Below, in pieces: positions 11,121 through 43,201 of a DNA stretch of 43,201 nt. The DNA is from a virus. A program made the translations under genes and the position numbers. Under the pieces are notes generated by a model, which searched no databases, was not told the origin of the DNA, and worked only from the letters and a program-made list of their open reading frames with translations. Numbering within the stretch: position 1 is the first letter of the stretch; each line of letters opens with the position of its first letter. Location: the IMG/VR virus record IMGVR_UViG_3300030503_000156, positions 1-43,201 of that record, one strand, 5' to 3'.

Positions 11121-13613
11121 ATGAAACATCTGGCAACACCCGCAAGAGAATACGCACCTGGCATGGGCATGGCGGTCGCGGACCGCACCATCAACCGGAA
11201 GATTACGCGACAGGTGCCGCTGTATAAGAAACACGTTGATTTGCCGCGCCGTGATGACATTTCGCTGGACAAGGAAGTTGCCGACTGGTGTAAGTCCAAC
11301 AATCTCGTGATCGACAGCTATGAAGTGCCGCATGGTGACGGCGAAATCGTCGAAGTGATCCTGTACGTGGTTGGCGAGGTCGAGGTTGAGAAATGGGAAG
11401 ATGTGGCGTATCGGGTCGCCTTCGGCAACTCGCTGCTGCACCCGACAGCGGAAGGCGACACTCTGTACGACGCTGCGGCACGCCGCAATGCTGAATTTGA
11501 AACCATGCACCATCACTTGCGCCAGGCATCGATCTTGATGTCGGGTCGCCACTTGCAGCACGGTGACGAGACTCAACCTACCCGCAATATGGAGGTCTTC
11601 ACGAACTGCTCGACTAGCGCGGCGTCGTTTCTGACCTTCTATCTGCTGCTGAACGGTTCAGGTGTCGGTCGCTCCTATGACGACGACATGCAAGTTCTCG
11701 ACTTCGCTAGTCTTCCGATCGTGACATGCGTTTGCGATGCGAGCCATGCTGACGTTCAAAACGGCACGATCAATGTGCTGGATGTGCGTACCGCGCGCCA
11801 CTTGTATCACGACAAGGCTGTTCATTACTTCGAAGTGCCGGACAGCCGCGAAGGTTGGGCCAAAGCGCTCGAAAAGATGGAATTGATGGCGTATCAGTGC
11901 ATTTATCGCAATGACGTTTTGTTGTTGGACTTCAGCAAGGTTCGTCCGAAAGGCTCGCCAATCATGGGAATGCAAGGGCGACCCGCGTCCGGCCCGGCTC
12001 CGTTGATGTCGGCCATTGCCAACGTGGCAAAGCTGCGCGACGCTGGAATGTCTCGCTGGCGCTCTGCGATGTATGCCGATCACTATCTGGCCGAATGCGT
12101 TCTGGTAGGCGGTGCGCGTCGTGCTGCCCGCATGGCGACAAAGATTTGGCGCGACAAGAATGTTCTGGAATTCATCGCGGTCAAGCGCGGCGGCTTCCTC
12201 TGGTCGAGCAATAACAGCGTATTGGTGGATCAGGAATTTTGGGACGCGGTGATGAAGGCGCAGGTGCTTCTGGGCGCAGGTGCAGAAAGCTATGAACAGC
12301 TTTGGCGCGACCGTAAGATTAATGCTCTGGAACTGCACGCCTGTAATGTATTTAATGCCGTTTGCGAAGCCGCGTATCACGACGGAACCGGCGAGCCTGG
12401 CTTGATCACGGTCGATAGGCTGACCTATTCGGACGAAGGCACAGAGGTTCTGTTCGATGGCAACTTTGCCGAGTCTGAGCGCTATAAGCTGGAGCCGGCA
12501 ACGCTCGAACTGACTGCGGCACTCGCGAAAGCGTGGCAGGGCTGCCGCTATAAGGTTATCACCAACCCTTGCGGCGAGATCGTTCTGTCGGCGCTGGGCG
12601 GCTACTGTGTCATCGCTGACGTGGTGCCGTACCATGCTGGAGCTACCGGCCTGAAAGGCGAGACCCGCAAACTTACAGTTTGGGATGCCGACGCCGAAGA
12701 CGCCTTCCGCACCGCAACCCGCGCGCTGATTCGCACCAACCTGATGGACAGTCTGTACCGCAAAGAGGTACAGCGCACCAACCGGATCGGCGTCGGCATT
12801 ACTGGTCTGCATGAATACGCCTGGGCGCGCTTCGCTTTCGGGTTCCGCGACATCATCGACGAAGTGAAGTCGAAGGCATTCTGGCTCACGCTGTCACGCT
12901 TCAAACGAGCGGTTCAGGACGAGGCTGCTGTTTACTCGGCACTGATTGGCGTCGTCGCGCCGCATACCGACACGACCATCAAGCCGGCCGGTACGACATC
13001 CAAGCTGTTCGGGCTGACGGAAGGCGCGCATTTGGCGTCGATGCGGGAGTTCTTGCGTTGGGTGCAGTTCCGTAACGGCGACCCGCTGATCGAGGAATAC
13101 CGCGTCAAGGGCTACCCTGTCCGTGAGTTGCGTATCTATAGCGGTACGACGATTGTCGGCTTCCCGACGCAACCGACGATCTGCCAGCTTGGCATGGGCG
13201 ACCTACTTGTCACGGCGGCAGAAGCTACACCGGAAGAGCAATACCAATACCTGCGCTTGCTGGAGAAGTATTGGATTACCGGCGTTGCGGAAGACGGCGT
13301 GACTCCATTGCGCGAGACAGGCAATCAGGTGTCTTATACATTGAAGTATAAGCCGACTGAAGTCAGCTTCGAGGAGTTCAAGTCAACCCTGTTGGCTGGT
13401 CAATCCACGATCCGCTGCTGCTCGGTCATGCCGCAAACCGACACTTCGGCGTACGAGTACACGCCGGAGGAAATGGTGTCCAAGCATGAGTACGAAATGA
13501 TCGTCAACGCGATCAAATCGGACATCAAGGAAGAGGTTGGACTGGAACACGTCGGCTGTGCCGGCGGCGCCTGCCCGATCGACTTTGGCACCAACGAGGC
13601 GTCGGAATCATGA
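11121..13613 (+). CDS. nrdJ: adenosylcobalamin-dependent (class II) ribonucleotide reductase
   Basis: 830 aa. Makes deoxyribonucleotides without oxygen or an iron subunit, using vitamin B12 coenzyme. Features: NCSTSAASF near 161; ACNVFNAVCEA near 410; NPCGEIVLSALGGYC near 482-496; PAGTTSKLFGLTEGAH near 620; and a C-terminal redox pair C813 and C818 in CAGGACP, as in the monomeric Lactobacillus RTPR (CxGGACP ending). No NrdB-like or NrdG-like partner gene is nearby, consistent with class II. Under a palindromic box. The stop overlaps a micro-gene. Confidence 0.88.
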   Translation: MKHLATPAREYAPGMGMAVADRTINRKITRQVPLYKKHVDLPRRDDISLDKEVADWCKSNNLVIDSYEVPHGDGEIVEVILYVVGEVEVEKWEDVAYRVAFGNSLLHPTAEGDTLYDAAARRNAEFETMHHHLRQASILMSGRHLQHGDETQPTRNMEVFTNCSTSAASFLTFYLLLNGSGVGRSYDDDMQVLDFASLPIVTCVCDASHADVQNGTINVLDVRTARHLYHDKAVHYFEVPDSREGWAKALEKMELMAYQCIYRNDVLLLDFSKVRPKGSPIMGMQGRPASGPAPLMSAIANVAKLRDAGMSRWRSAMYADHYLAECVLVGGARRAARMATKIWRDKNVLEFIAVKRGGFLWSSNNSVLVDQEFWDAVMKAQVLLGAGAESYEQLWRDRKINALELHACNVFNAVCEAAYHDGTGEPGLITVDRLTYSDEGTEVLFDGNFAESERYKLEPATLELTAALAKAWQGCRYKVITNPCGEIVLSALGGYCVIADVVPYHAGATGLKGETRKLTVWDADAEDAFRTATRALIRTNLMDSLYRKEVQRTNRIGVGITGLHEYAWARFAFGFRDIIDEVKSKAFWLTLSRFKRAVQDEAAVYSALIGVVAPHTDTTIKPAGTTSKLFGLTEGAHLASMREFLRWVQFRNGDPLIEEYRVKGYPVRELRIYSGTTIVGFPTQPTICQLGMGDLLVTAAEATPEEQYQYLRLLEKYWITGVAEDGVTPLRETGNQVSYTLKYKPTEVSFEEFKSTLLAGQSTIRCCSVMPQTDTSAYEYTPEEMVSKHEYEMIVNAIKSDIKEEVGLEHVGCAGGACPIDFGTNEASES

Positions 13614-36926: not shown

Positions 36927-36950
36927 TACGCAACGCTTGACAGGTTGAAT

Positions 36951-37025
36951 GAGGAAAGGGCTTGACGGGGCAGAGGAATGAAAGTCCTAGAAGGATTCAG
37001 GCCCCTTGGTGGCCCTGCCTTCCTC
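36951..37025 (+). ncRNA. candidate structured RNA or leader
   Basis: GAGGAA and GGCAG (36951-36956, 36969-36973) pair with CTGCC and TTCCTC (37015-37025). Inside are AGGA/TCCT and GGCC/GGCC hairpins, and GGGGC could alternatively pair with GCCCC (37001-37005). It follows a box and -10-like hexamer. It could be a small RNA or a long 5' leader of the lipoprotein gene. Confidence 0.4.
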
Positions 37026-37152
37026 GTTCCGACCCTGGAAATGAGACCCTTATAGAAATTCCGGGAAAATCCGCCGGAGACTCCTTATAGATTCTTGCCG
37101 CGTGCTAACATCTATCCGCGCTTTGCTCACTGACCCGCAGCCACGGAGAAAA

Positions 37153-37842
37153 ATGATTATGAAGCTGTTTTCAATATTGTCGGTACTGGCAACGCTCCCA
37201 ATTCTTACCTCTTGCACAAAGCAACACGATGAATTTGTCGGCACCTGGGGCAACGAATGGATGGGAGGGACGGTACATTTCGTCGTAACCAAAGATGGCA
37301 GCGACTCATTTATCGTCAAAGAGGTGCTTTTGGAAAATGGGGCCATAATTTCGACGAGCGTGGGCAAGGTCGTTAATGATCAACTTGTCTTGAATGATGG
37401 CACCGGACTGTTTGGTAAGTTTGCCTACTCACCCTCGGAAAATGCATTGGTGGTTATTAATCAGCCGACTTCACCAATCTATCGTCGTGTAGCCACATTG
37501 ACCGCGAGCGACATAAGCAACGCAAAAAAAGAGATCGACGTAATAGTAAAGCCAGCTTTTGTTGCAACTGGAACAGCTTGTTCGACAAACTTTCCAGGGG
37601 CGCCCGACATCAGCAACGCAGTCCTTGGGTTGCCTTCAGCGTCAAGTATGTCTGGCGCGTATATTGATTCTGTTTTTACCGGAGGCACTGAATCTGAGCC
37701 GACAATAACAGTCACCTTTAAAACGATTGGAAATGCGCTCCCTGCTGGGCGAACCTTGGTCTATAGAGGAGTTTGTTCGACGACAGGTCTTGCGTGGACG
37801 GTTAGCGGCACTGGATTGGAAATATTGAACGCGAAGGGGTAG
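37153..37842 (+). CDS. lipoprotein with type IV pilin-like C-terminal domain
   Basis: 229 aa. Signal peptide with lipobox LTSC (Cys near residue 21). Residues 22-115 form a strand-rich domain (FVGTWGNEWMGGTVHFV). From about 135 the pattern ACSTNF, LGLPSASSMSGAYIDSVF, ITVTFKTIGNALPAGRTLVY and WTVSGTG follows the C-terminal head of PilA-type pilins, including two cysteines. The hydrophobic pilin N-terminal helix is absent, so it cannot join a pilus normally. It may interfere with pili or block superinfection. GGAG precedes the ATG. The pilin match is by eye. Confidence 0.7.
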   Translation: MIMKLFSILSVLATLPILTSCTKQHDEFVGTWGNEWMGGTVHFVVTKDGSDSFIVKEVLLENGAIISTSVGKVVNDQLVLNDGTGLFGKFAYSPSENALVVINQPTSPIYRRVATLTASDISNAKKEIDVIVKPAFVATGTACSTNFPGAPDISNAVLGLPSASSMSGAYIDSVFTGGTESEPTITVTFKTIGNALPAGRTLVYRGVCSTTGLAWTVSGTGLEILNAKG

Positions 37843-37844
37843 AC

Positions 37845-38039
37845 ATGACGATGAGAACCTATACTTGGTATCGATGTACTTGCGGCCATCGTGGTGCCGT
37901 GGTCGTCAGCGAAAACGACCAGCCTTACTCCAAAATGTGGGAAAGTACGAGCTTGAAGGAACTCGCCGGCACATCTGAACACCCTGTTTGCCCCAAGTGT
38001 AAAGCCGTCCTGTCCGCATCGAACATCGAACACGAATAG
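37845..38039 (+). CDS. zinc-ribbon protein
   Basis: 64 aa. CTCGHRG near 11-17 and CPKCKA near 49-54. Strand-rich between. Follows the lipoprotein stop by two bases, with GAAGGGG as its site, so they form one operon. Role unknown. Confidence 0.62.
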   Translation: MTMRTYTWYRCTCGHRGAVVVSENDQPYSKMWESTSLKELAGTSEHPVCPKCKAVLSASNIEHE

Positions 38040-38048
38040 GGAAATGCC

Positions 38049-38198
38049 ATGACGCGCTTTATTATCTACAGCATCATATATTCTGCAATTTTCTGGCTCC
38101 TCTTCCCGCCTGGTGACAAGTCCTACGCTATCGTCGGCGGACTGCTAGTTGCGGCGGTGTCGATAGGCGTCTCGAAGCTATTCAAAATCGGCAAATGA
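38049..38198 (+). CDS. 49-residue membrane protein
   Basis: Two hydrophobic segments: FIIYSIIYSAIFWLLF (4-19) and AIVGGLLVAAVSIGVSKLF (27-45). Nine bases after the zinc-ribbon stop. It overlaps the tail of a minus-strand gene by 76 bases. Could be a partner of the lipoprotein. Confidence 0.58.
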   Translation: MTRFIIYSIIYSAIFWLLFPPGDKSYAIVGGLLVAAVSIGVSKLFKIGK

Positions 38199-38437
38199 CG
38201 CAATGCGACGGCTCGCTCAGTCAGCCTCTTGTATTCCCTCATGGCCTCGCCCAACATAAGCAGCGGGCCGTCGCCATACCAATCCTCGGTACAAACGGAG
38301 CATCCGAGAAAAGCCCCAGGATTTCCGTCGACTGACGCCTCTTGTACGATCACCACGGAATAGCCATTAACTTGCGGAGTGATCGCGGTCAATTTTCGAT
38401 TCATGTTCAATTTCGGTGTTTCCTGAGTTCCGCACAT
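38123..38437 (-). CDS. hypothetical protein of the minus-strand operon
   Basis: 104 aa. The ATG overlaps the upstream stop (TGATG), so translation is coupled. ITPQVNGYSVVIVQEASVDG, CSVCTEDWYGDG and a helix. No signal peptide, unrecognised. Its last 76 bases overlap the convergent plus-strand gene. Confidence 0.58.
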   Translation of the reverse strand: MCGTQETPKLNMNRKLTAITPQVNGYSVVIVQEASVDGNPGAFLGCSVCTEDWYGDGPLLMLGEAMREYKRLTERAVALRHLPILNSFETPIDTAATSSPPTIA

Positions 38438-38769
38438 CAGCAGCCAATCCTTCGCAAGAAGAAATAATAGACCCACATTACCAATAACAATAGCCCGTAG
38501 ATCAGAGTGGGCCGGACGCGTCGCGCACGATAGGATCGTATTGCCCCAACCACCAGAAGACCCAATATCAGTATCCCGGTAAGCGGAACAAAGATATCGG
38601 ACATGTCGTCGCTTTCGGTTGGAAGATCGCAAAACGTCGTTACCTTGCCGTCATGAACCTCGCCCTCGAAAGCGTCGTATGGTGAGGTTGTCCCAATGAG
38701 TATAAGCAGCGCCACCAATAACGAGTATATTGGCGCGATTAGGGCCATTAAGAATTTACGAACTTTCAT
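38437..38769 (-). CDS. membrane protein paired with the lysozyme-like gene
   Basis: 110 aa. A hydrophobic N-terminal segment (LMALIAPIYSLLVALLILIG), a soluble loop of about 40 residues (FEGEVHDGKVTTFCDLPTES), and two C-terminal segments (IFVPLTGILILGLLVVGAI and TLIYGLLLLVMWVYYFF). Starts one base after the upstream stop. It could be an immunity protein or a holin-like partner of the muramidase candidate. Confidence 0.65.
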   Translation of the reverse strand: MKVRKFLMALIAPIYSLLVALLILIGTTSPYDAFEGEVHDGKVTTFCDLPTESDDMSDIFVPLTGILILGLLVVGAIRSYRARRVRPTLIYGLLLLVMWVYYFFLRRIGC

Positions 38770-38770
38770 A

Positions 38771-39469
38771 TTAGATTCCCAGCAACCCTGTTACTTCCAT
38801 GCGATGCTCCATCATTGACCTACCGTATGATGACCATTCGCGCTTCAGCGTATCTTTCGGTGAGGCCATTGAGTCTTTCAAATCCTTTATTGAGCGTGCC
38901 GTCCCTCGGTTATAGCGAATCCCCGCCACCATAAATTGCTCATCAGTAAGTCTGCGTGTATTGGCTGTTGGGTAGTCACGCAAAATCGTCTGCCGCAGGA
39001 ACTTCGCTACAACGTCGATATTGAACACATCAGTTTCAAGACAGTCAGTCAGCTCTCCTTGCTGCTCACGAGTTAATGGCGCACCTTTGTAACCCATAGC
39101 CGATAATGCATTCCTTAACTGAATCTTGATCGCCCCTTCAGACGTTGCCATTGGATCACCCGTTCCTGGTACATACTGACGCAGAGGCAGGGCGAAATGA
39201 TGTTTAATGTAAGGAGCCTTTCCACCAGCTTCATTGTAAGCGACGCACCCGAGAAGATCGGGGGGTATCTGCTGCAAATTTGCCGAATAAAGTATCCGCA
39301 ATTTGTTATAGGACACCCACGCCCTTTTATACGCCCATATTTGCTGCATGCCGCCATGTGTATGTAGCCATTTCCAGTTTGGCGTAGCCCTCCCCGAGAT
39401 CATTTGCCAAGTTGTCCATTTCGGAAAATTTTGCGGGGTGTACGTACAAAATTGGTTCGAGTCTGCCAT
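38771..39469 (-). CDS. possible lysozyme-like muramidase (endolysin or effector)
   Basis: 232 aa, no signal peptide or membrane helix. IPPDLLGCVAYNEAGGKAPY near residues 66-85 resembles the helix carrying the catalytic Glu of lysozyme and transglycosylase-like effectors. Later segments FNIDVVAKFLRQTI and FMVAGIRYNRGTARSI also fit a goose-lysozyme-style fold. Closest impression is toxin-type lysozymes of the type VI secretion kind, or a phage endolysin. The assignment is tentative. It heads a three-gene minus-strand operon with its own promoter and palindromic operator. Confidence 0.6.
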   Translation of the reverse strand: MADSNQFCTYTPQNFPKWTTWQMISGRATPNWKWLHTHGGMQQIWAYKRAWVSYNKLRILYSANLQQIPPDLLGCVAYNEAGGKAPYIKHHFALPLRQYVPGTGDPMATSEGAIKIQLRNALSAMGYKGAPLTREQQGELTDCLETDVFNIDVVAKFLRQTILRDYPTANTRRLTDEQFMVAGIRYNRGTARSIKDLKDSMASPKDTLKREWSSYGRSMMEHRMEVTGLLGI

Positions 39470-39502
39470 TGTCGTTTAACCATCGAAAGTAAAATTTTCG
39501 CT

Positions 39503-39531
39503 ATTATACTTGGCTTTTCGACAATTGTTCA
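39503..39531 (-). promoter_or_regulatory. promoter of the lysozyme-like operon
   Basis: On the minus strand, TGAACA (39526-39531) and TATAAT (39503-39508) are separated by exactly 17 bases. The start codon follows about 33 bases after the -10; no ribosome binding site is obvious. Confidence 0.65.
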
Positions 39532-39549
39532 CCTGTCATAAATGACAGG
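39532..39549. promoter_or_regulatory. perfect palindrome CCTGTCAT-AA-ATGACAGG
   Basis: Eight-bp perfect arms with a 2-base centre, directly touching the -35 of the minus-strand promoter. Different in sequence from the dispersed 18-bp box, so probably the site of a dedicated regulator. Confidence 0.65.
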
Positions 39550-39703
39550 CTGCAATACACTGCCGCCGCAGATCGTTGCAGCACAAGCCGGCACGCACTT
39601 TCGCCATTACTTGCGCGTATATCAGAAACGCAATACAATGAAGCCTGACAGAAGTGACGCACGGGGTCGTTCCCCTATTAAGGTTTCATGGAGTCCGCAC
39701 TGT

Positions 39704-39776
39704 ACCACCGTCTTCCAAAGGATAGGCTGCCTCCCTAACGAAGAGGAGAATACCGGTTCGAGTCCGGTCGGTGGCG
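39704..39776 (+). tRNA. degenerate tRNA-like gene, anticodon AAC (Val) if read normally
   Basis: Acceptor ACCACCG pairs with CGGTGGC except at position 1-72. The T arm is perfect: ACCGG-TTCGAGT-CCGGT. The D loop AAAGGATA has the conserved GG, but the D stem keeps only two pairs. The anticodon stem CCTCC / AGAGG has a C-A mismatch at its base next to loop CTAACGA, giving AAC, which bacteria rarely use. No CCA is encoded. It may be a decaying, atypical or non-decoding tRNA. Confidence 0.5.
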
Positions 39777-39940
39777 CTTTTACAATAAGGCAGGGCCGCA
39801 TCCAGCAATGGGCGCGTTTCGTTAATCCCTAGATCAGTGGGGGCTTGCCGAATAAATTGATCAAGTTGACAGGGAAAAATGCATTCCGTGGTGGTGACTA
39901 CTGCAAACGGAGGCAAGTCGTATAGTTATGCTTTTCCAGG

Positions 39941-39969
39941 GCGCCCTTCTTAACCGGAGGGCGCTTTTT
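39941..39969 (+). terminator. rho-independent terminator
   Basis: Seven-bp stem GCGCCCT / AGGGCGC with a 10-base loop, followed by TTTTT. Ends the transcript from the tRNA-like gene. Confidence 0.85.
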
Positions 39970-39985
39970 ACTTTCTGGCAACGCT

Positions 39986-40288
39986 ATGCTCGCTCGCGTC
40001 ACACAATTCAGATATCGGGGCGTTCGCCGATCAGACCATGACATCACCAATGACCCAGGCGTTGTTGGCAAGGTTTCCCTTTATTCCGTCGCAAACTACC
40101 TCCAGATGACGGTCTGCGACCCGAATGACGTTGGCATAGCGCACCTGTTGCTACCCGCCTTGTTCGAGCCGGTCGTCTTCAACATCATCAATGGCGGCAT
40201 GCTCTTTCGCGGCTACCAGCGCGAGGGTGAGGGCAAGCACATGCCAACATACTTCCAGGAGTGGCGTGTCGAGCCACTCCCACGCTAG
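39986..40288 (+). CDS. hypothetical protein
   Basis: 100 aa. Basic N-terminus (ARVTQFRYRGVRRSDHD), a hydrophobic middle (IAHLLLPALFEPVVFNIING) and a charged end. No good ribosome binding site, so the start is uncertain. A perfect 8-bp hairpin (GGAGTGGC / GCCACTCC, 40258-40280) lies in its last codons. Unrecognised; it precedes the partition cassette. Confidence 0.55.
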   Translation: MLARVTQFRYRGVRRSDHDITNDPGVVGKVSLYSVANYLQMTVCDPNDVGIAHLLLPALFEPVVFNIINGGMLFRGYQREGEGKHMPTYFQEWRVEPLPR

Positions 40289-40294
40289 GCGCCC

Positions 40295-40356
40295 ATAATA
40301 CCGATATTATCCGCTCCTTAAATACGTTTACACTGAAATACAGAAAGGCGCATAAT
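40295..40356 (+). promoter_or_regulatory. promoter and possible partition site upstream of parA
   Basis: TTTACA (40327-40332) and CATAAT (40351-40356) are 18 bases apart. Upstream, ATAATA-CCGA-TATTAT (40295-40310) is a perfect palindrome, and ATAATCG/ATTATCG words recur at 40352 and 40368. ParG-type systems bind repeats here to autoregulate and to act as centromere. Confidence 0.5.
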
Positions 40357-40396
40357 CGTCTTTCCTCATTATCGTAAATGCAGAAATGGAGAAATG

Positions 40397-41035
40397 ATGA
40401 TATTTGGAATCCTGAACCAAAAGGGCGGCGTCGGCAAGACCACGCTATCCGTCAACCTGGCCGCATCATTGGCCCGCAATGGCAGCCGCATCCTTCTGAT
40501 CGACGCCGACCCGCAGGGGAGCGCCCTGGATTGGGCGGCGGCGAGGGCCGAGGGCGCAGAAGTGACTGCCTTGTTCTCGGTGGTCGGCCTGCCCCGGCCA
40601 TCTGTCCACAAGGAGATCGGGGCCTTGTCGGCCGGCTACGACCATGTGATCATCGACGGCCCGCCGCGCGTGACCGACCTGGCACGATCGGCCATGATGG
40701 CGTCGGATGTGATCGTTATACCGGTGCAGCCAAGTCCATACGATGTGTGGGCGGCTGCGGAGGTGATAAAATTGGTCAAAGAGGCTTCTGTATATAAGGA
40801 AGCACTGAAATCATGTTTTGTGATAAACCGCAAAATCGCAAATACTGCGATCGGTAGGGACATTGGAGCCGGTCTGGCGGCTTATAGCACGCACGTACTA
40901 AATGCGGCAGTCGCGCAGCGTGTCGTGTTCGCTGAAGCGGTTGCGCAGGGCAAGTCAATTTTCGAGATTGACGAGCGCGGGAAGGGCGCCAGGGAGATCC
41001 AAGACGTCGCAGACGAACTCATAAAGGGGTGGTGA
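40397..41035 (+). CDS. parA: ParA-type partition ATPase
   Basis: 212 aa. Deviant Walker [10 protein letters not shown] near residues 8-16, [12 protein letters not shown] near 36-47 and VIIDGPPR near 84-91. Short, without an N-terminal helix-turn-helix, so type Ib (ParF/Soj-like). Such ATPases position plasmids or prophage-plasmids along the nucleoid. An ATG three bases earlier is possible. The repeated leader CAGAAATGGAGAAATGATGA carries its ribosome binding site. Forms a two-gene operon with a ribbon-helix-helix gene. Confidence 0.88.
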
Positions 41036-41036
41036 A

Positions 41037-41258
41037 ATGGCAACGGGCGGCAAGAAGGTTGTAATCGGGGCGAAACCTAATGTCGCCCGAACGCCAGACA
41101 ATTGGGTCGACGACAAAGCATCGTCCGACCCAACCAAGCGGCTGACACTGGACATACCGGTCGAGTTGCACCGGAGGATCAAGGCCGACTGCGCGGTAAA
41201 GGATGCCAGTATGGTCGAGGAGATTACTAAGCTGCTGGAAAAGCGCTGGCCGAAGTGA
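41037..41258 (+). CDS. ParG-like ribbon-helix-helix partition protein
   Basis: 73 aa, the size of ParG (76). A flexible basic N-terminus (GGKKVVIGAKPNVAR) is followed by RLTLDIPVELHRRIKADCAV and a second helix (ASMVEEITKLLEKRW): the ribbon strand and two helices of RHH proteins. It would bind the site upstream of parA and stimulate the ATPase through its N-terminal arm. One base after the parA stop. Confidence 0.82.
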   Translation: MATGGKKVVIGAKPNVARTPDNWVDDKASSDPTKRLTLDIPVELHRRIKADCAVKDASMVEEITKLLEKRWPK

Positions 41259-41297
41259 CTACATGTGGCGAGAAGCATTTGATGAAGTCCCGGCTCA

Positions 41298-41630
41298 TTA
41301 CTGCAAGTCGAGGGTCAGGGCATTCGCCATCGTTTCAAACTTTGCCTGCTCTTGCTCATCGGCACGAGTGCCGGCGGCGTCCATTGCCGTCATCCATTGC
41401 GCAAGCATTGCCTTGGCTTTTGGACGAATGGCATCTGACTGGAAGAAGCCGAGGATGTGCCCAGCTTCGAAGTCCCGCGCCCGCTCACAACTGGCCGGCA
41501 ATAAGTTGTGACACATGCGCAGGTCGTTTCGCAGAACTTTGATCGCAAGCCGCTGCTGGTCGACGGAATCAGCCGCCTGCGTTGACGCAGCGCACAGCGC
41601 TAAGATGCCTACTAGAATTGCCTTTTTCAT
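41298..41630 (-). CDS. small secreted protein
   Basis: 110 aa, minus strand. Signal peptide MKKAILVGILALCAASTQA (cleavage after residue 19). The mature part is helical with two cysteines (MCHNLLPASCERA) that may pair. GGAGAGAG before the ATG. Function unknown; periplasmic. Confidence 0.68.
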   Translation of the reverse strand: MKKAILVGILALCAASTQAADSVDQQRLAIKVLRNDLRMCHNLLPASCERARDFEAGHILGFFQSDAIRPKAKAMLAQWMTAMDAAGTRADEQEQAKFETMANALTLDLQ

Positions 41631-41655
41631 ACTCTCTCCAAAGTTGAGGCGAATT

Positions 41656-41946
41656 TTACACTGACGGGTTGCCACCAGTCATCTTTTCAAGCCACTCACG
41701 CTGCTCCGGCGTGAGGCTCTTGAGTTTCGCCAGGAGCGCCTTGTCAACACCGCCGCGCATGTCAACCTTCTCTTCGCGCCGTCGGGTAAAGTAGGTATCC
41801 ATTTCGTTCATGTCGGCATTGTCCAACATGACCTCGACGACTTCGCCCTGGCTGATCTTGTACTTCTTAGCCAGCTCGGCCAGGTTGCGCTGGTGTGGCT
41901 TGCTTGTGGTGATGGTGAAGCGCGCCGTCTGGTCTTCATCTTGCAT
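41656..41946 (-). CDS. ribbon-helix-helix-like regulator (candidate)
   Basis: 96 aa. GGGAGAA sets the ATG at 41946. ARFTITTSKPHQRNLAELAK then YKISQGEVVEVMLDNAD fits a strand-helix-helix RHH DNA-binding fold. The C-terminus is helical (LKSLTPEQREWLEKM). RHH dimers bind short palindromes, so it could regulate some of the operators seen here. The link is untested. Confidence 0.65.
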   Translation of the reverse strand: MQDEDQTARFTITTSKPHQRNLAELAKKYKISQGEVVEVMLDNADMNEMDTYFTRRREEKVDMRGGVDKALLAKLKSLTPEQREWLEKMTGGNPSV

Positions 41947-41980
41947 GATAAATTCTCCCGTGATTTTCATTCGCATGCTT

Positions 41981-41986
41981 ATTATA
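41981..41986 (-). promoter_or_regulatory. -10 element TATAAT of the RHH-like gene
   Basis: On the minus strand GCGCTATAATAAG, close to the GAGCTATAATAAG of box 1 but without the palindromic box upstream. No good -35; the upstream sequence is the terminator at 41994. Confidence 0.5.
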
Positions 41987-41993
41987 GCGCATG

Positions 41994-42016
41994 AAAAAAG
42001 CGCCCGAAGACGCTTT
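41994..42016 (-). terminator. rho-independent terminator (minus strand)
   Basis: Read on the minus strand: AAAGCG, an 8-base loop TCTTCGGG, CGCTTT and a run of Ts (41994-41999). It ends the membrane-protein gene 18 bases downstream of its stop. Confidence 0.75.
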
Positions 42017-42033
42017 GTGATTGACGAGGGGTA

Positions 42034-42225
42034 TTAACTGATGGCGGCGTTGAAACCAATCTTGGGATCATCGTCTTCTTCCGGCGGCCCTTGAGCCAGC
42101 AGCCCGAACGGCAAGCGCTCGATCAGCAGCGGCAAGACCAGGATCACCAGCGGATTGTGAGTCACGTACAGCGCCCCAAGAACGAAGAGCAGGATGGCTA
42201 CATTGAAAAATACACCATGATTCAT
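42034..42225 (-). CDS. small membrane protein
   Basis: 63 aa. Residues 5-40 (FFNVAILLFVLGALYVTHNP, then LVILVLPLLIERL) make two closely spaced hydrophobic segments; the tail is acidic (GPPEEDDDPKIG). Its promoter region contains box 17. Confidence 0.65.
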   Translation of the reverse strand: MNHGVFFNVAILLFVLGALYVTHNPLVILVLPLLIERLPFGLLAQGPPEEDDDPKIGFNAAIS

Positions 42226-42238
42226 AGGCTCTTTCTGA

Positions 42239-42256
42239 TAAGTTTTCGGTGACTTA
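42239..42256. promoter_or_regulatory. 18-bp palindromic box 17 (minus orientation)
   Basis: TAAGTTTTCGGTGACTTA. Read on the minus strand it runs into CTTATCA at the -10 offset, facing the membrane-protein gene. Confidence 0.68.
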
Positions 42257-42397
42257 CTTTACGCGAAAACTGACAACTTGTGTATAAGGGTTCGTTGATT
42301 TCTGATAATATTACGCCACATTAACTTTGTTGCAGCTTCCACCATTTGGCCGTCTGGTCTGCTAAGTCAGGGATTCAGGGGCGGGAATATGACACTC

Positions 42398-42490
42398 ATG
42401 GCCGACGAGTGCCCATTATTGCCTGCGCTCGGCAACCGTTTCGTAAAGCAACTTCAACCCTCCGGGTTGAAAACGCTCTTTAGAAACGGT
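42398..42490 (+). ncRNA. candidate structured leader RNA
   Basis: Two parts: GCCGA (42398) can pair with TCGGC near 42429; then ACCGTTTC and GAAACGGT (about 42437-42490) enclose TAAAGC / GC-T-CTTTA and TTCAACCC / GGGTTGAA with a TCC loop. The stacked stems end 20 bases before the next start codon. The sequence matches no RNA family that I know. Confidence 0.45.
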
Positions 42491-42510
42491 GTATAAAAGT
42501 GGAGAAGTGT

Positions 42511-42684
42511 ATGAAATTCAAGGTTCTGTATCAAGTCAACGATGAGTTTGCAACTGACGTGATCGAGTCTAGCGTTATAAGTGGTCAGGCGTTTGCCGAA
42601 GCTATGAAGCCGCTATACGAGAGAGCGGGGGTCGAATTTCTAGGCGTGGTATCGGTCGCTGAGATAGATGTTGATGTTTGGTAA
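42511..42684 (+). CDS. 57-residue hypothetical protein
   Basis: MKFKVLYQVNDEFATDVIES then a helix and a last strand (VSVAEIDVDVW); a compact alpha/beta protein. The ATG at 42511 with GGAG upstream is preferred to a GTG 12 bases earlier. It is preceded by a candidate structured leader and followed by a terminator, so it is a single-gene unit. Confidence 0.65.
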   Translation: MKFKVLYQVNDEFATDVIESSVISGQAFAEAMKPLYERAGVEFLGVVSVAEIDVDVW

Positions 42685-42689
42685 GTAAT

Positions 42690-42721
42690 AATGGGCCGGG
42701 GTCAAACCTGGCCCATTTCCA
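42690..42721 (+). terminator. rho-independent terminator
   Basis: Perfect 8-bp stem AATGGGCC / GGCCCATT with a 12-base loop, then TCCATTTT. Ends the 57-residue gene. Confidence 0.7.
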
Positions 42722-42823
42722 TTTTAGCGTGGGGCGGGTCTTGTCCATTGGGCAAACTTGGCCGGCAATGTTATGCTCGGATGGCCCGCACTTTGCGGCA
42801 CAGCGAACACTGAGTAGGCACGC

Positions 42824-43201
42824 ATGAATAAAATGACTGAAGCGGCGAGACTGGCGTGGCAGGAGGCTTATTTCGCGAGAATTAATTGGAAACATCACCT
42901 GCTGGATATTGCGAAAATGGCTCTGGCAGACTTCGAGCGCGATTTGGACAGGGATCATCAAGATAAGCCTCGCTCAACAATCATCAGTGAGGAGGTTGCA
43001 AAAGGCTTGCATGACGACGCGAAGAAGGTGATATGGGGTGACTCAATTTGCGTTAGCTTTGGCGCGAGACCAGTGGCAGGAATACCGGTGGTTTCTGTCA
43101 AAAGACAATCCACAATAATGTCAGAGGATTGCGCCTCATTGGTCATTTCGCAATTTATCTCGGGGTCTGTCTTTGCGATGATTTATCCGCCCTGTTCGGA
43201 A
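42824..43201 (+). CDS. hypothetical protein, 3' end beyond the window
   Basis: Open from the ATG at 42824 to the window edge, at least 126 residues. MNKMTEAARLAWQEAYFAR is a helical start; RPVAGIPVVSVKRQ is strand-rich; SLVISQFISGSVFAMIYPP is hydrophobic. No ribosome binding site is clear. Unrecognised. Confidence 0.6.
   Translation, partial: MNKMTEAARLAWQEAYFARINWKHHLLDIAKMALADFERDLDRDHQDKPRSTIISEEVAKGLHDDAKKVIWGDSICVSFGARPVAGIPVVSVKRQSTIMSEDCASLVISQFISGSVFAMIYPPCSE

What the first reader, a model, noticed from the sequence alone, without database searches (positions are those of the whole stretch)
37153..37842. Lipoprotein carrying a type IV pilin-like head
A lipid-anchored N-terminal domain is joined to a C-terminal part that follows the PilA head pattern, lacking the pilin assembly helix. 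A phage-encoded decoy pilin on the cell surface or in the periplasm could jam pilus assembly or mask the receptor of pilus-dependent phages. It is followed by a zinc-ribbon gene and a two-helix membrane protein in one operon.
Basis: inference. Interest (0 to 1): 0.66.

Follow-up and report, generated by a model that had tools for sequence, protein, structure and literature searches.

The report
Phage lipoprotein carrying a pilin head
A bacterial virus carries a gene for a fat-anchored protein whose outer half is the head of a bacterial pilus subunit with its assembly rod cut off, which could let the virus jam or mimic the pili that other viruses use to get in.

Summary
Confirmed as an object; function unproven. 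The ORF at 37153-37842 (+, 229 aa) has a lipoprotein signal (LTS|C21), an N-terminal beta domain (about residues 22-113) and a C-terminal type IV pilin head (about 118-229). A profile of 80 bacterial pilin heads scores 27.1 bits on it (0 of 5000 shuffles). Burkholderiales PilA reach 43% identity (E 5e-12) and share its cysteine pair (C143, C208) and the end of helix alpha1-C. The prepilin site and the hydrophobic assembly helix are absent. AlphaFold2, given a pilin alignment, models most of the head at pLDDT above 90, and the 19 best VIA matches all contain a pilin (Z up to 11.4). The N-domain matches free-standing small lipoproteins, two inside conjugation operons. The gene lies in a variable interval of a tailed phage whose relatives measure 81-112 kb. 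No other protein of this architecture was found in the collections searched. Best explanation: a superinfection-exclusion lipoprotein that acts on the host type IV pilus by presenting an unpolymerisable pilin head; a decoy for other phages, or an unrelated re-use of the fold, is not excluded.

The parts
37153..37842 (+). chimeric lipoprotein gene, 229 aa
   Evidence: no full-length relative
37153..37212 (+). lipoprotein signal peptide (residues 1-20)
   Evidence: sequence: MIMK + hydrophobic stretch + LTS|C; no signal-peptide predictor was run
37213..37215 (+). lipidated cysteine C21; +2 Thr, +3 Lys
   Evidence: sequence; lipidation itself not tested
37216..37491 (+). N-terminal beta domain (residues 22-113), small-lipoprotein type, motif FVGTW
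   Evidence: 33%, E 6e-3; E 2.1e-7 in that plasmid; 32.8 bits
37504..37839 (+). type IV pilin head: end of helix alpha1 (118-144) and four-stranded sheet (171-218)
37579..37581 (+). Cys143, aligned with the first of the pilin cysteine pair (PA..A.G.ACS)
37774..37776 (+). Cys208, aligned with the second of the pilin cysteine pair
37845..38039 (+). 64-aa ORF with two short cysteine pairs (zinc-ribbon-like), 2 bases after the lipoprotein stop
   Evidence: all matches below cut-off
38049..38198 (+). 49-aa ORF with two hydrophobic stretches; weak holin-like scores
35812..36642 (+). upstream 276-aa phage gene with a homologue beside the same interval in a relative (left boundary of the variable interval)
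   Evidence: 32% over 124 aa, L163; phrog_9272, phrog_4202
41656..41976 (-). 106-aa phage gene with homologues in three relatives (right boundary of the variable interval)
   Evidence: 69% in L160, 46% in L163, 29% in L167

Best explanation
A phage-encoded superinfection-exclusion (receptor-blocking) lipoprotein aimed at the host type IV pilus. SHOWN by sequence and model: lipoprotein signal, small beta domain, and a pilin head of the cysteine-pair type found in Burkholderiales PilA, with the prepilin-peptidase site and the polymerising helix alpha1-N replaced by the lipidated domain; it sits in a variable interval of a large tailed phage. INFERRED: the protein is exported by Sec, lipidated and held in the periplasm; its head is presented where newly made PilA heads dock (the PilN/PilO/PilP alignment complex, the minor-pilin tip complex, the pilus base or the PilQ vestibule) but cannot be added to the filament because it lacks alpha1-N, so extension stalls or pili are lost; T4P-dependent phages, including sister virions, then cannot adsorb.
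For: Pilin head beyond chance; core kept but assembly part lost: of 35 columns invariant in six cysteine-type pilins, the query keeps 13 of 20 in the head, 2 of 10 in the helix part and 3 of 5 in the C-terminal part; AF2 head mostly at pLDDT above 90 and VIA Z 11.4 to a P. aeruginosa pilin, 8.5 to Burkholderia cenocepacia PilA. All 129 pilin-head frames in the bacterial loci examined (32 of 1178 frames, overlapping loci included, plus 97 from the pilin-drawn loci) carry a prepilin motif; the phage one does not. Precedents: phage T5 Llp is a periplasmic lipoprotein that blocks the receptor FhuA (PMC9586334, abstract and passages); Pf PfsE, binding PilC, and PilB-directed phage proteins suppress T4P to exclude phages (PMC8764522 abstract; PMC11436027 passages). 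A relative (G005) holds a different predicted lipoprotein in the same interval.
Against: No functional data. Host unknown; a type IV pilus in the host is inferred only from the kind of head. Identity of the head to known PilA is at most 43%, so binding surfaces may have diverged; the conserved C-terminal K-x-x-P of pilins is largely lost. By the E. coli +2 rule (recalled) Thr at +2 sends it to the outer membrane, away from the inner-membrane assembly platform. Only one copy of the chimera is known, so no selection test was possible, and none of the ten related records searched has it.
Confidence: 0.45

Rival explanations
1. Surface decoy: the lipoprotein is displayed on the outer face (or on vesicles and debris) and the pilin head binds the receptor-binding proteins of competing pilus-dependent phages, soaking them up.
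For: A pilin head is what such phages bind; the +2 residue is compatible with outer-membrane sorting (recalled rule). A distant N-domain relative, L144, has a glycine run after its cysteine, which some surface lipoproteins have (recalled).
Against: No surface-export signal was identified in the phage protein; a decoy would also trap the phage's own progeny if it uses pili; loss of alpha1-N is not needed for a decoy.
Confidence: 0.17
2. Pilin-partner capture with another aim: the head binds a natural pilin partner (minor pilins, PilY1-like tip protein, pilin glycosyltransferase, DNA-uptake or type II secretion parts) and alters adhesion, competence or secretion of the infected cell rather than excluding phages.
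For: Pilin heads carry such contacts (recalled); two N-domain relatives sit inside conjugation operons (L142 between VirB5 and VirB8; L145 after TrbL/VirB6), so this lipoprotein type keeps company with envelope-spanning machines.
Against: No partner can be named; these N-domain relatives also occur away from such operons.
Confidence: 0.13
3. The fold is re-used or decaying: a captured host pilin fragment fused to a lipoprotein, kept as a generic periplasmic domain or drifting, with no pilus-related function.
For: Single known copy; ten related records lack it; C-terminal K-x-x-P lost.
Against: Open frame of 229 codons, lipobox, cysteine pair, Trp215 and head core kept at about 35% identity, which free drift would not be expected to keep; operon-like spacing.
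Confidence: 0.2
4. Lysis lipoprotein (outer-membrane spanin part), given the nearby lysozyme-like and holin-like genes.
For: Lipoprotein near a 49-aa holin-like ORF (15-16 bits) and a 232-aa ORF of a family of unknown function with a lysozyme-like look by eye (38771-39469, phrog_11932).
Against: Size and pilin head are unlike any spanin known to me (recalled); the 232-aa gene is on the other strand; no inner-membrane spanin partner was identified.
Confidence: 0.05

Closest known systems
Major type IVa pilin PilA of Burkholderiales, cysteine-pair type (PF00114; solved relative PDB 9jrv, Burkholderia cenocepacia)
   Same: head fold, helix alpha1-C end (PA..A.G.ACS), cysteine pair, up to 43% identity
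   Different: no prepilin leader, no alpha1-N assembly helix, lipid anchor instead; C-terminal K-x-x-P lost
Superinfection-exclusion lipoproteins Llp (T5) and Cor (T1, phi80)
   Same: phage-encoded lipoprotein; proposed to disable a surface receptor from the periplasm as Llp does (PMC9586334, abstract and passages)
   Different: those are small and act on the transporter FhuA; this one is 229 aa with a pilin head; no sequence comparison with Llp or Cor was made
Phage inhibitors of type IV pili: PfsE, PilB-directed proteins (Tip, Aqs1; names recalled), Gp21
   Same: proposed outcome, loss of T4P function in the infected cell
   Different: in the abstract and passages seen they act on PilC, PilB or expression; none is described there as a pilin-head mimic
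Small FVGTW lipoproteins of an Acinetobacter plasmid, Burkholderiales and conjugation operons (P0001, L130, L142, L144, L145)
   Same: signal peptide and N-terminal beta domain
   Different: end after the domain or carry other tails; none carries a pilin head
Engineered Haemophilus Protein E-PilA chimera (PDB 6gut)
   Same: one chain that joins another envelope protein to a PilA head (title; that Protein E is a lipoprotein is recalled)
   Different: made in the laboratory; the phage protein is natural and its N-domain was not shown to be related to Protein E

Membership tests
Type IV pilin (PF00114) | head fold: alpha1-C packed on a four-stranded antiparallel sheet | tested here: met
   (model made with a pilin alignment); the alignment-free model was too poor to tell
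Type IV pilin (PF00114) | sequence homology to pilin heads | tested here: met
   27.1 bits, 0 of 5000 shuffles; 43% identity, E 5e-12
Type IV pilin (PF00114) | score over the curated Pfam cut-off | tested here: not met
   13.8 bits against 22
Type IV pilin (PF00114) | prepilin peptidase site G|F-T-L-I-E and hydrophobic alpha1-N | tested here: not met
   absent from the sequence; present in 129 of 129 pilin-head frames examined in bacterial loci
Bacterial lipoprotein | signal peptide with lipobox and Cys | tested here: met
   LTS|C21 read from the sequence; no predictor run, lipidation not testable here
Phage superinfection-exclusion lipoprotein (Llp/Cor kind) | phage-encoded lipoprotein | tested here: met
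   gene between phage-conserved genes
Phage superinfection-exclusion lipoprotein (Llp/Cor kind) | blocks a phage receptor and later infection | not testable with these tools
   needs expression and plating
Phage superinfection-exclusion lipoprotein (Llp/Cor kind) | sequence or fold likeness to Llp or Cor | not tested
   no Llp or Cor sequence was compared
Phage inhibitor of type IV pili | reduces pili or twitching of the host | not testable with these tools
   host unknown, no expression data
Small FVGTW lipoprotein (N-domain) | homology of the N-terminal domain | tested here: met
   32.8 bits, 0 of 10,000 shuffles

The most novel reading that the evidence does not exclude
A natural dominant-negative pilin: phages turn a host-type pilus subunit into a weapon by swapping its assembly helix for a lipid-anchored lipoprotein domain, so that the head caps or jams the type IV pilus machine from the periplasm; the lipoprotein part may itself come from the same stock as lipoproteins of conjugation machines.
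Probability: 0.35. Interest if true: 0.78.

Novelty: new variant of a known kind. Interest (0 to 1): 0.6.

Why it matters
The phage blocks on type IV pili that I saw described act on motor or platform proteins (PilB, PilC) or on expression. A pilin head that cannot polymerise, fixed to a membrane by lipid, would be a dominant-negative subunit: it would show which surface of the pilin the machine reads before insertion, a question that is hard to study because full pilins polymerise. It would also add receptor mimicry to the lipoprotein route of superinfection exclusion known from T5.

Tried and rejected
Close relatives of the whole protein: none in viral contigs, genome contigs, phages or plasmids beyond the N-domain; the contig scans need an exact or near-exact short peptide, so distant chimeras could be missed. 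A cysteine-type pilin-head pattern in viral contigs gave 34 stretches and no relative. Whole Pfam, PHROGs and NCBIfam scans of the protein gave nothing. PDB phmmer of the C-domain gave PilA among six hits, all non-significant (E 0.08 or worse), with viral capsid rows ranked above PilA. Viral structure library: no match at E 0.001. Alignment-free AlphaFold2 of the C-domain: pLDDT 40.7, useless. N-domain against PDB: best Z about 5 (RhsA, NlpE), not significant. Structured RNA upstream (36938-37098), suspected by eye: z -1.3, 23 of 200 shuffles fold as well, and no Rfam match there. Promoter and terminator scans found no more than shuffles. A Pseudomonadales search gave only marginal hits, 6 of 390 genomes. 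Two 'phage' records with a full pilin (one of the two was opened) show the pilin beside an O-antigen ligase-like gene and look like bacterial chromosome to me (inference). Literature: searches showed no paper on a phage-encoded pilin head or lipoprotein-pilin fusion (titles and abstract starts seen); two returned zero papers.

Full report
The thing itself. The ORF at 37153-37842 (+) encodes 229 aa starting MIMKLFSIL...LTSCTKQHDEFVGTW. The signal ends in a lipobox (LTS|C21). Residues 22-113 form a small beta domain; residues 118-229 follow the pattern of a type IV pilin head. There is no prepilin-peptidase site and no hydrophobic assembly helix in front of the head.

Is the pilin head real? The whole-Pfam, PHROGs and NCBIfam scans are silent, so the claim needed its own test. 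PF00114 alone rings once in the record, exactly here, at 13.8 bits (E 0.003, below its cut-off). I fetched 80 bacterial pilin genes by likeness to a Pseudomonas plasmid pilin, not to the query, and built a profile of their heads: the query scores 27.1 bits, the best of 5000 shuffles 18.5; among 2881 frames of this phage and three relatives the next score is 8.0. The full-length query then hit Burkholderiales PilA at E 5e-12 and 43% identity over residues 131-220 (19 of 399 genomes had any match at E 0.01, some of them N-domain or chance hits). A profile of 13 such pilins, chosen for likeness, gives 65.7 bits against a shuffle maximum of 13.8 in 10,000.

Anatomy of the match. It begins inside helix alpha1-C and includes PA..A.G.ACS, the cysteine pair (C143, C208), GLP, the sheet and Trp215. 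Of 35 columns invariant in six cysteine-type pilins the query keeps 13 of 20 in the head, 2 of 10 in the helix part and 3 of 5 in the C-terminal part. So the polymerising part has gone and the head core has stayed. The AlphaFold2 model made with 19 pilin heads has a helix at 118-144 and strands at 171-178, 183-189, 201-209 and 212-218, mostly at pLDDT above 90. Foldseek's three probability-1.00 matches are pilins (best E 7.6e-3, none below 1e-3), and the first 19 VIA rows all contain a pilin (Z 5.6-11.4; row 5 is an engineered Protein E-PilA chimera). The alignment steers the model, and the alignment-free model failed (pLDDT 40.7), so the sequence statistics carry the claim.

The N-terminal domain. 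It resembles an Acinetobacter plasmid lipoprotein of about 174 aa (33%) and small lipoproteins of Burkholderiales. A profile of four of them gives the query 32.8 bits, shuffles at most 12.2. Two relatives sit in conjugation operons: L142 between VirB5 and VirB8 with VirB6 and CagX/VirB9-type genes around it, L145 behind TrbL/VirB6 and before SSB and a T2SSE-type ATPase. Others have no such neighbours in the stretches read. In the bacterial loci of the genome searches, 7 frames matched the N-domain profile, 32 the pilin profiles, and none both (overlapping loci included).

Setting. The window is a 43,201-bp IMG/VR record, part of a tailed phage with UvsX, gp32-like SSB, 5'-3' exonuclease, SbcCD, ribonucleotide reductase and thymidylate synthase. 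Three long relatives have records of 81, 110 and 112 kb; the nearest named phages by UvsX infect Pseudomonas, Stenotrophomonas and Rhizobium, at 38-45% identity in the rows listed, so the host is not known. A second contig, L002, is identical to window 37850-43201 and runs 2851 bases beyond the window end. The gene lies between a 276-aa gene with a homologue in G005 and a 106-aa gene with homologues in G003, G005 and G008. In G005 the interval holds a different predicted lipoprotein, a zinc-ribbon ORF and other small genes, so this is a variable cargo site. No pilin head is found in the ten related records searched.

Neighbours. The 64-aa ORF starts 2 bases after the lipoprotein stop and the 49-aa ORF 9 bases after that; coupling is likely but unproven. 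Their Pfam matches are all below cut-off and their PHROG matches weak.

How it most likely works. Phage lipoproteins that shut a receptor from the periplasm exist: T5 Llp binds the periplasmic face of FhuA (PMC9586334, abstract and passages). Phage proteins that shut down type IV pili exist: PfsE binds PilC (PMC8764522, abstract); others act on PilB or expression (PMC11436027, passages). That PilA contacts PilMNOPQ I know only from the title of a cited paper (Tammam 2013, seen in a reference list). A pilin head fixed by lipid and unable to polymerise fits a dominant-negative subunit. Shown: the architecture. Inferred: export, place, partner and effect. The decoy reading needs surface display, for which no signal was identified; re-use of the fold without a pilus role stays possible because only one copy is known.

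Verdict. Observation confirmed; interpretation partly supported; a new variant of the phage superinfection-exclusion lipoprotein kind if the function holds.

Noticed in passing
window 40394-41035 and 41037-41258 (+): ParA ATPase (PF13614, 98 bits) followed by a ribbon-helix-helix ORF close to ParG (21.3 bits, cut-off 21.4): a partition-like pair, which may mean that the phage can live as a plasmid (a 31% ParA homologue in G008).
   Followed up: partly
L014, L015, L022 (6.6-6.9 kb Pseudomonas plasmids); L019, L020 (6.3-6.6 kb Acinetobacter plasmids): Small plasmids carry a single complete pilin gene as cargo; in the three Pseudomonas plasmids, with a shared gene order, the pilin heads differ. 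Possible pilin swapping by mobile elements.
   Followed up: partly
L163:12963-13499 (-) and 12767-12961 (+): In relative G005 the same variable interval holds an unrelated predicted lipoprotein (lipobox LIG|C, weak phrog_16082) and a zinc-ribbon-like ORF.
   Followed up: partly
L142:1501-1821 and L145:1501-1836: Small FVGTW lipoproteins encoded inside conjugation (type IV secretion) operons, at places where VirB7 or entry-exclusion lipoproteins often sit (position recalled; neighbours).
   Followed up: partly
window 39704-39777 (+): tRNA-Val (AAC) found by ARAGORN and Rfam (36.2 bits) in the cargo region.
   Followed up: no
window 38437-39469 (-): Convergent pair: a 232-aa ORF of phrog_11932 (unknown function, 92 bits; lysozyme-like look by eye) and a membrane protein over the DUF2645 cut-off (27.8 bits).
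   Followed up: partly
window 37850 / L002 end: Another contig (sample number 3300030687), identical to the window from 37850 on, stops 8 bases after the lipoprotein gene; this may be an assembly break at a strain variant.
   Followed up: no
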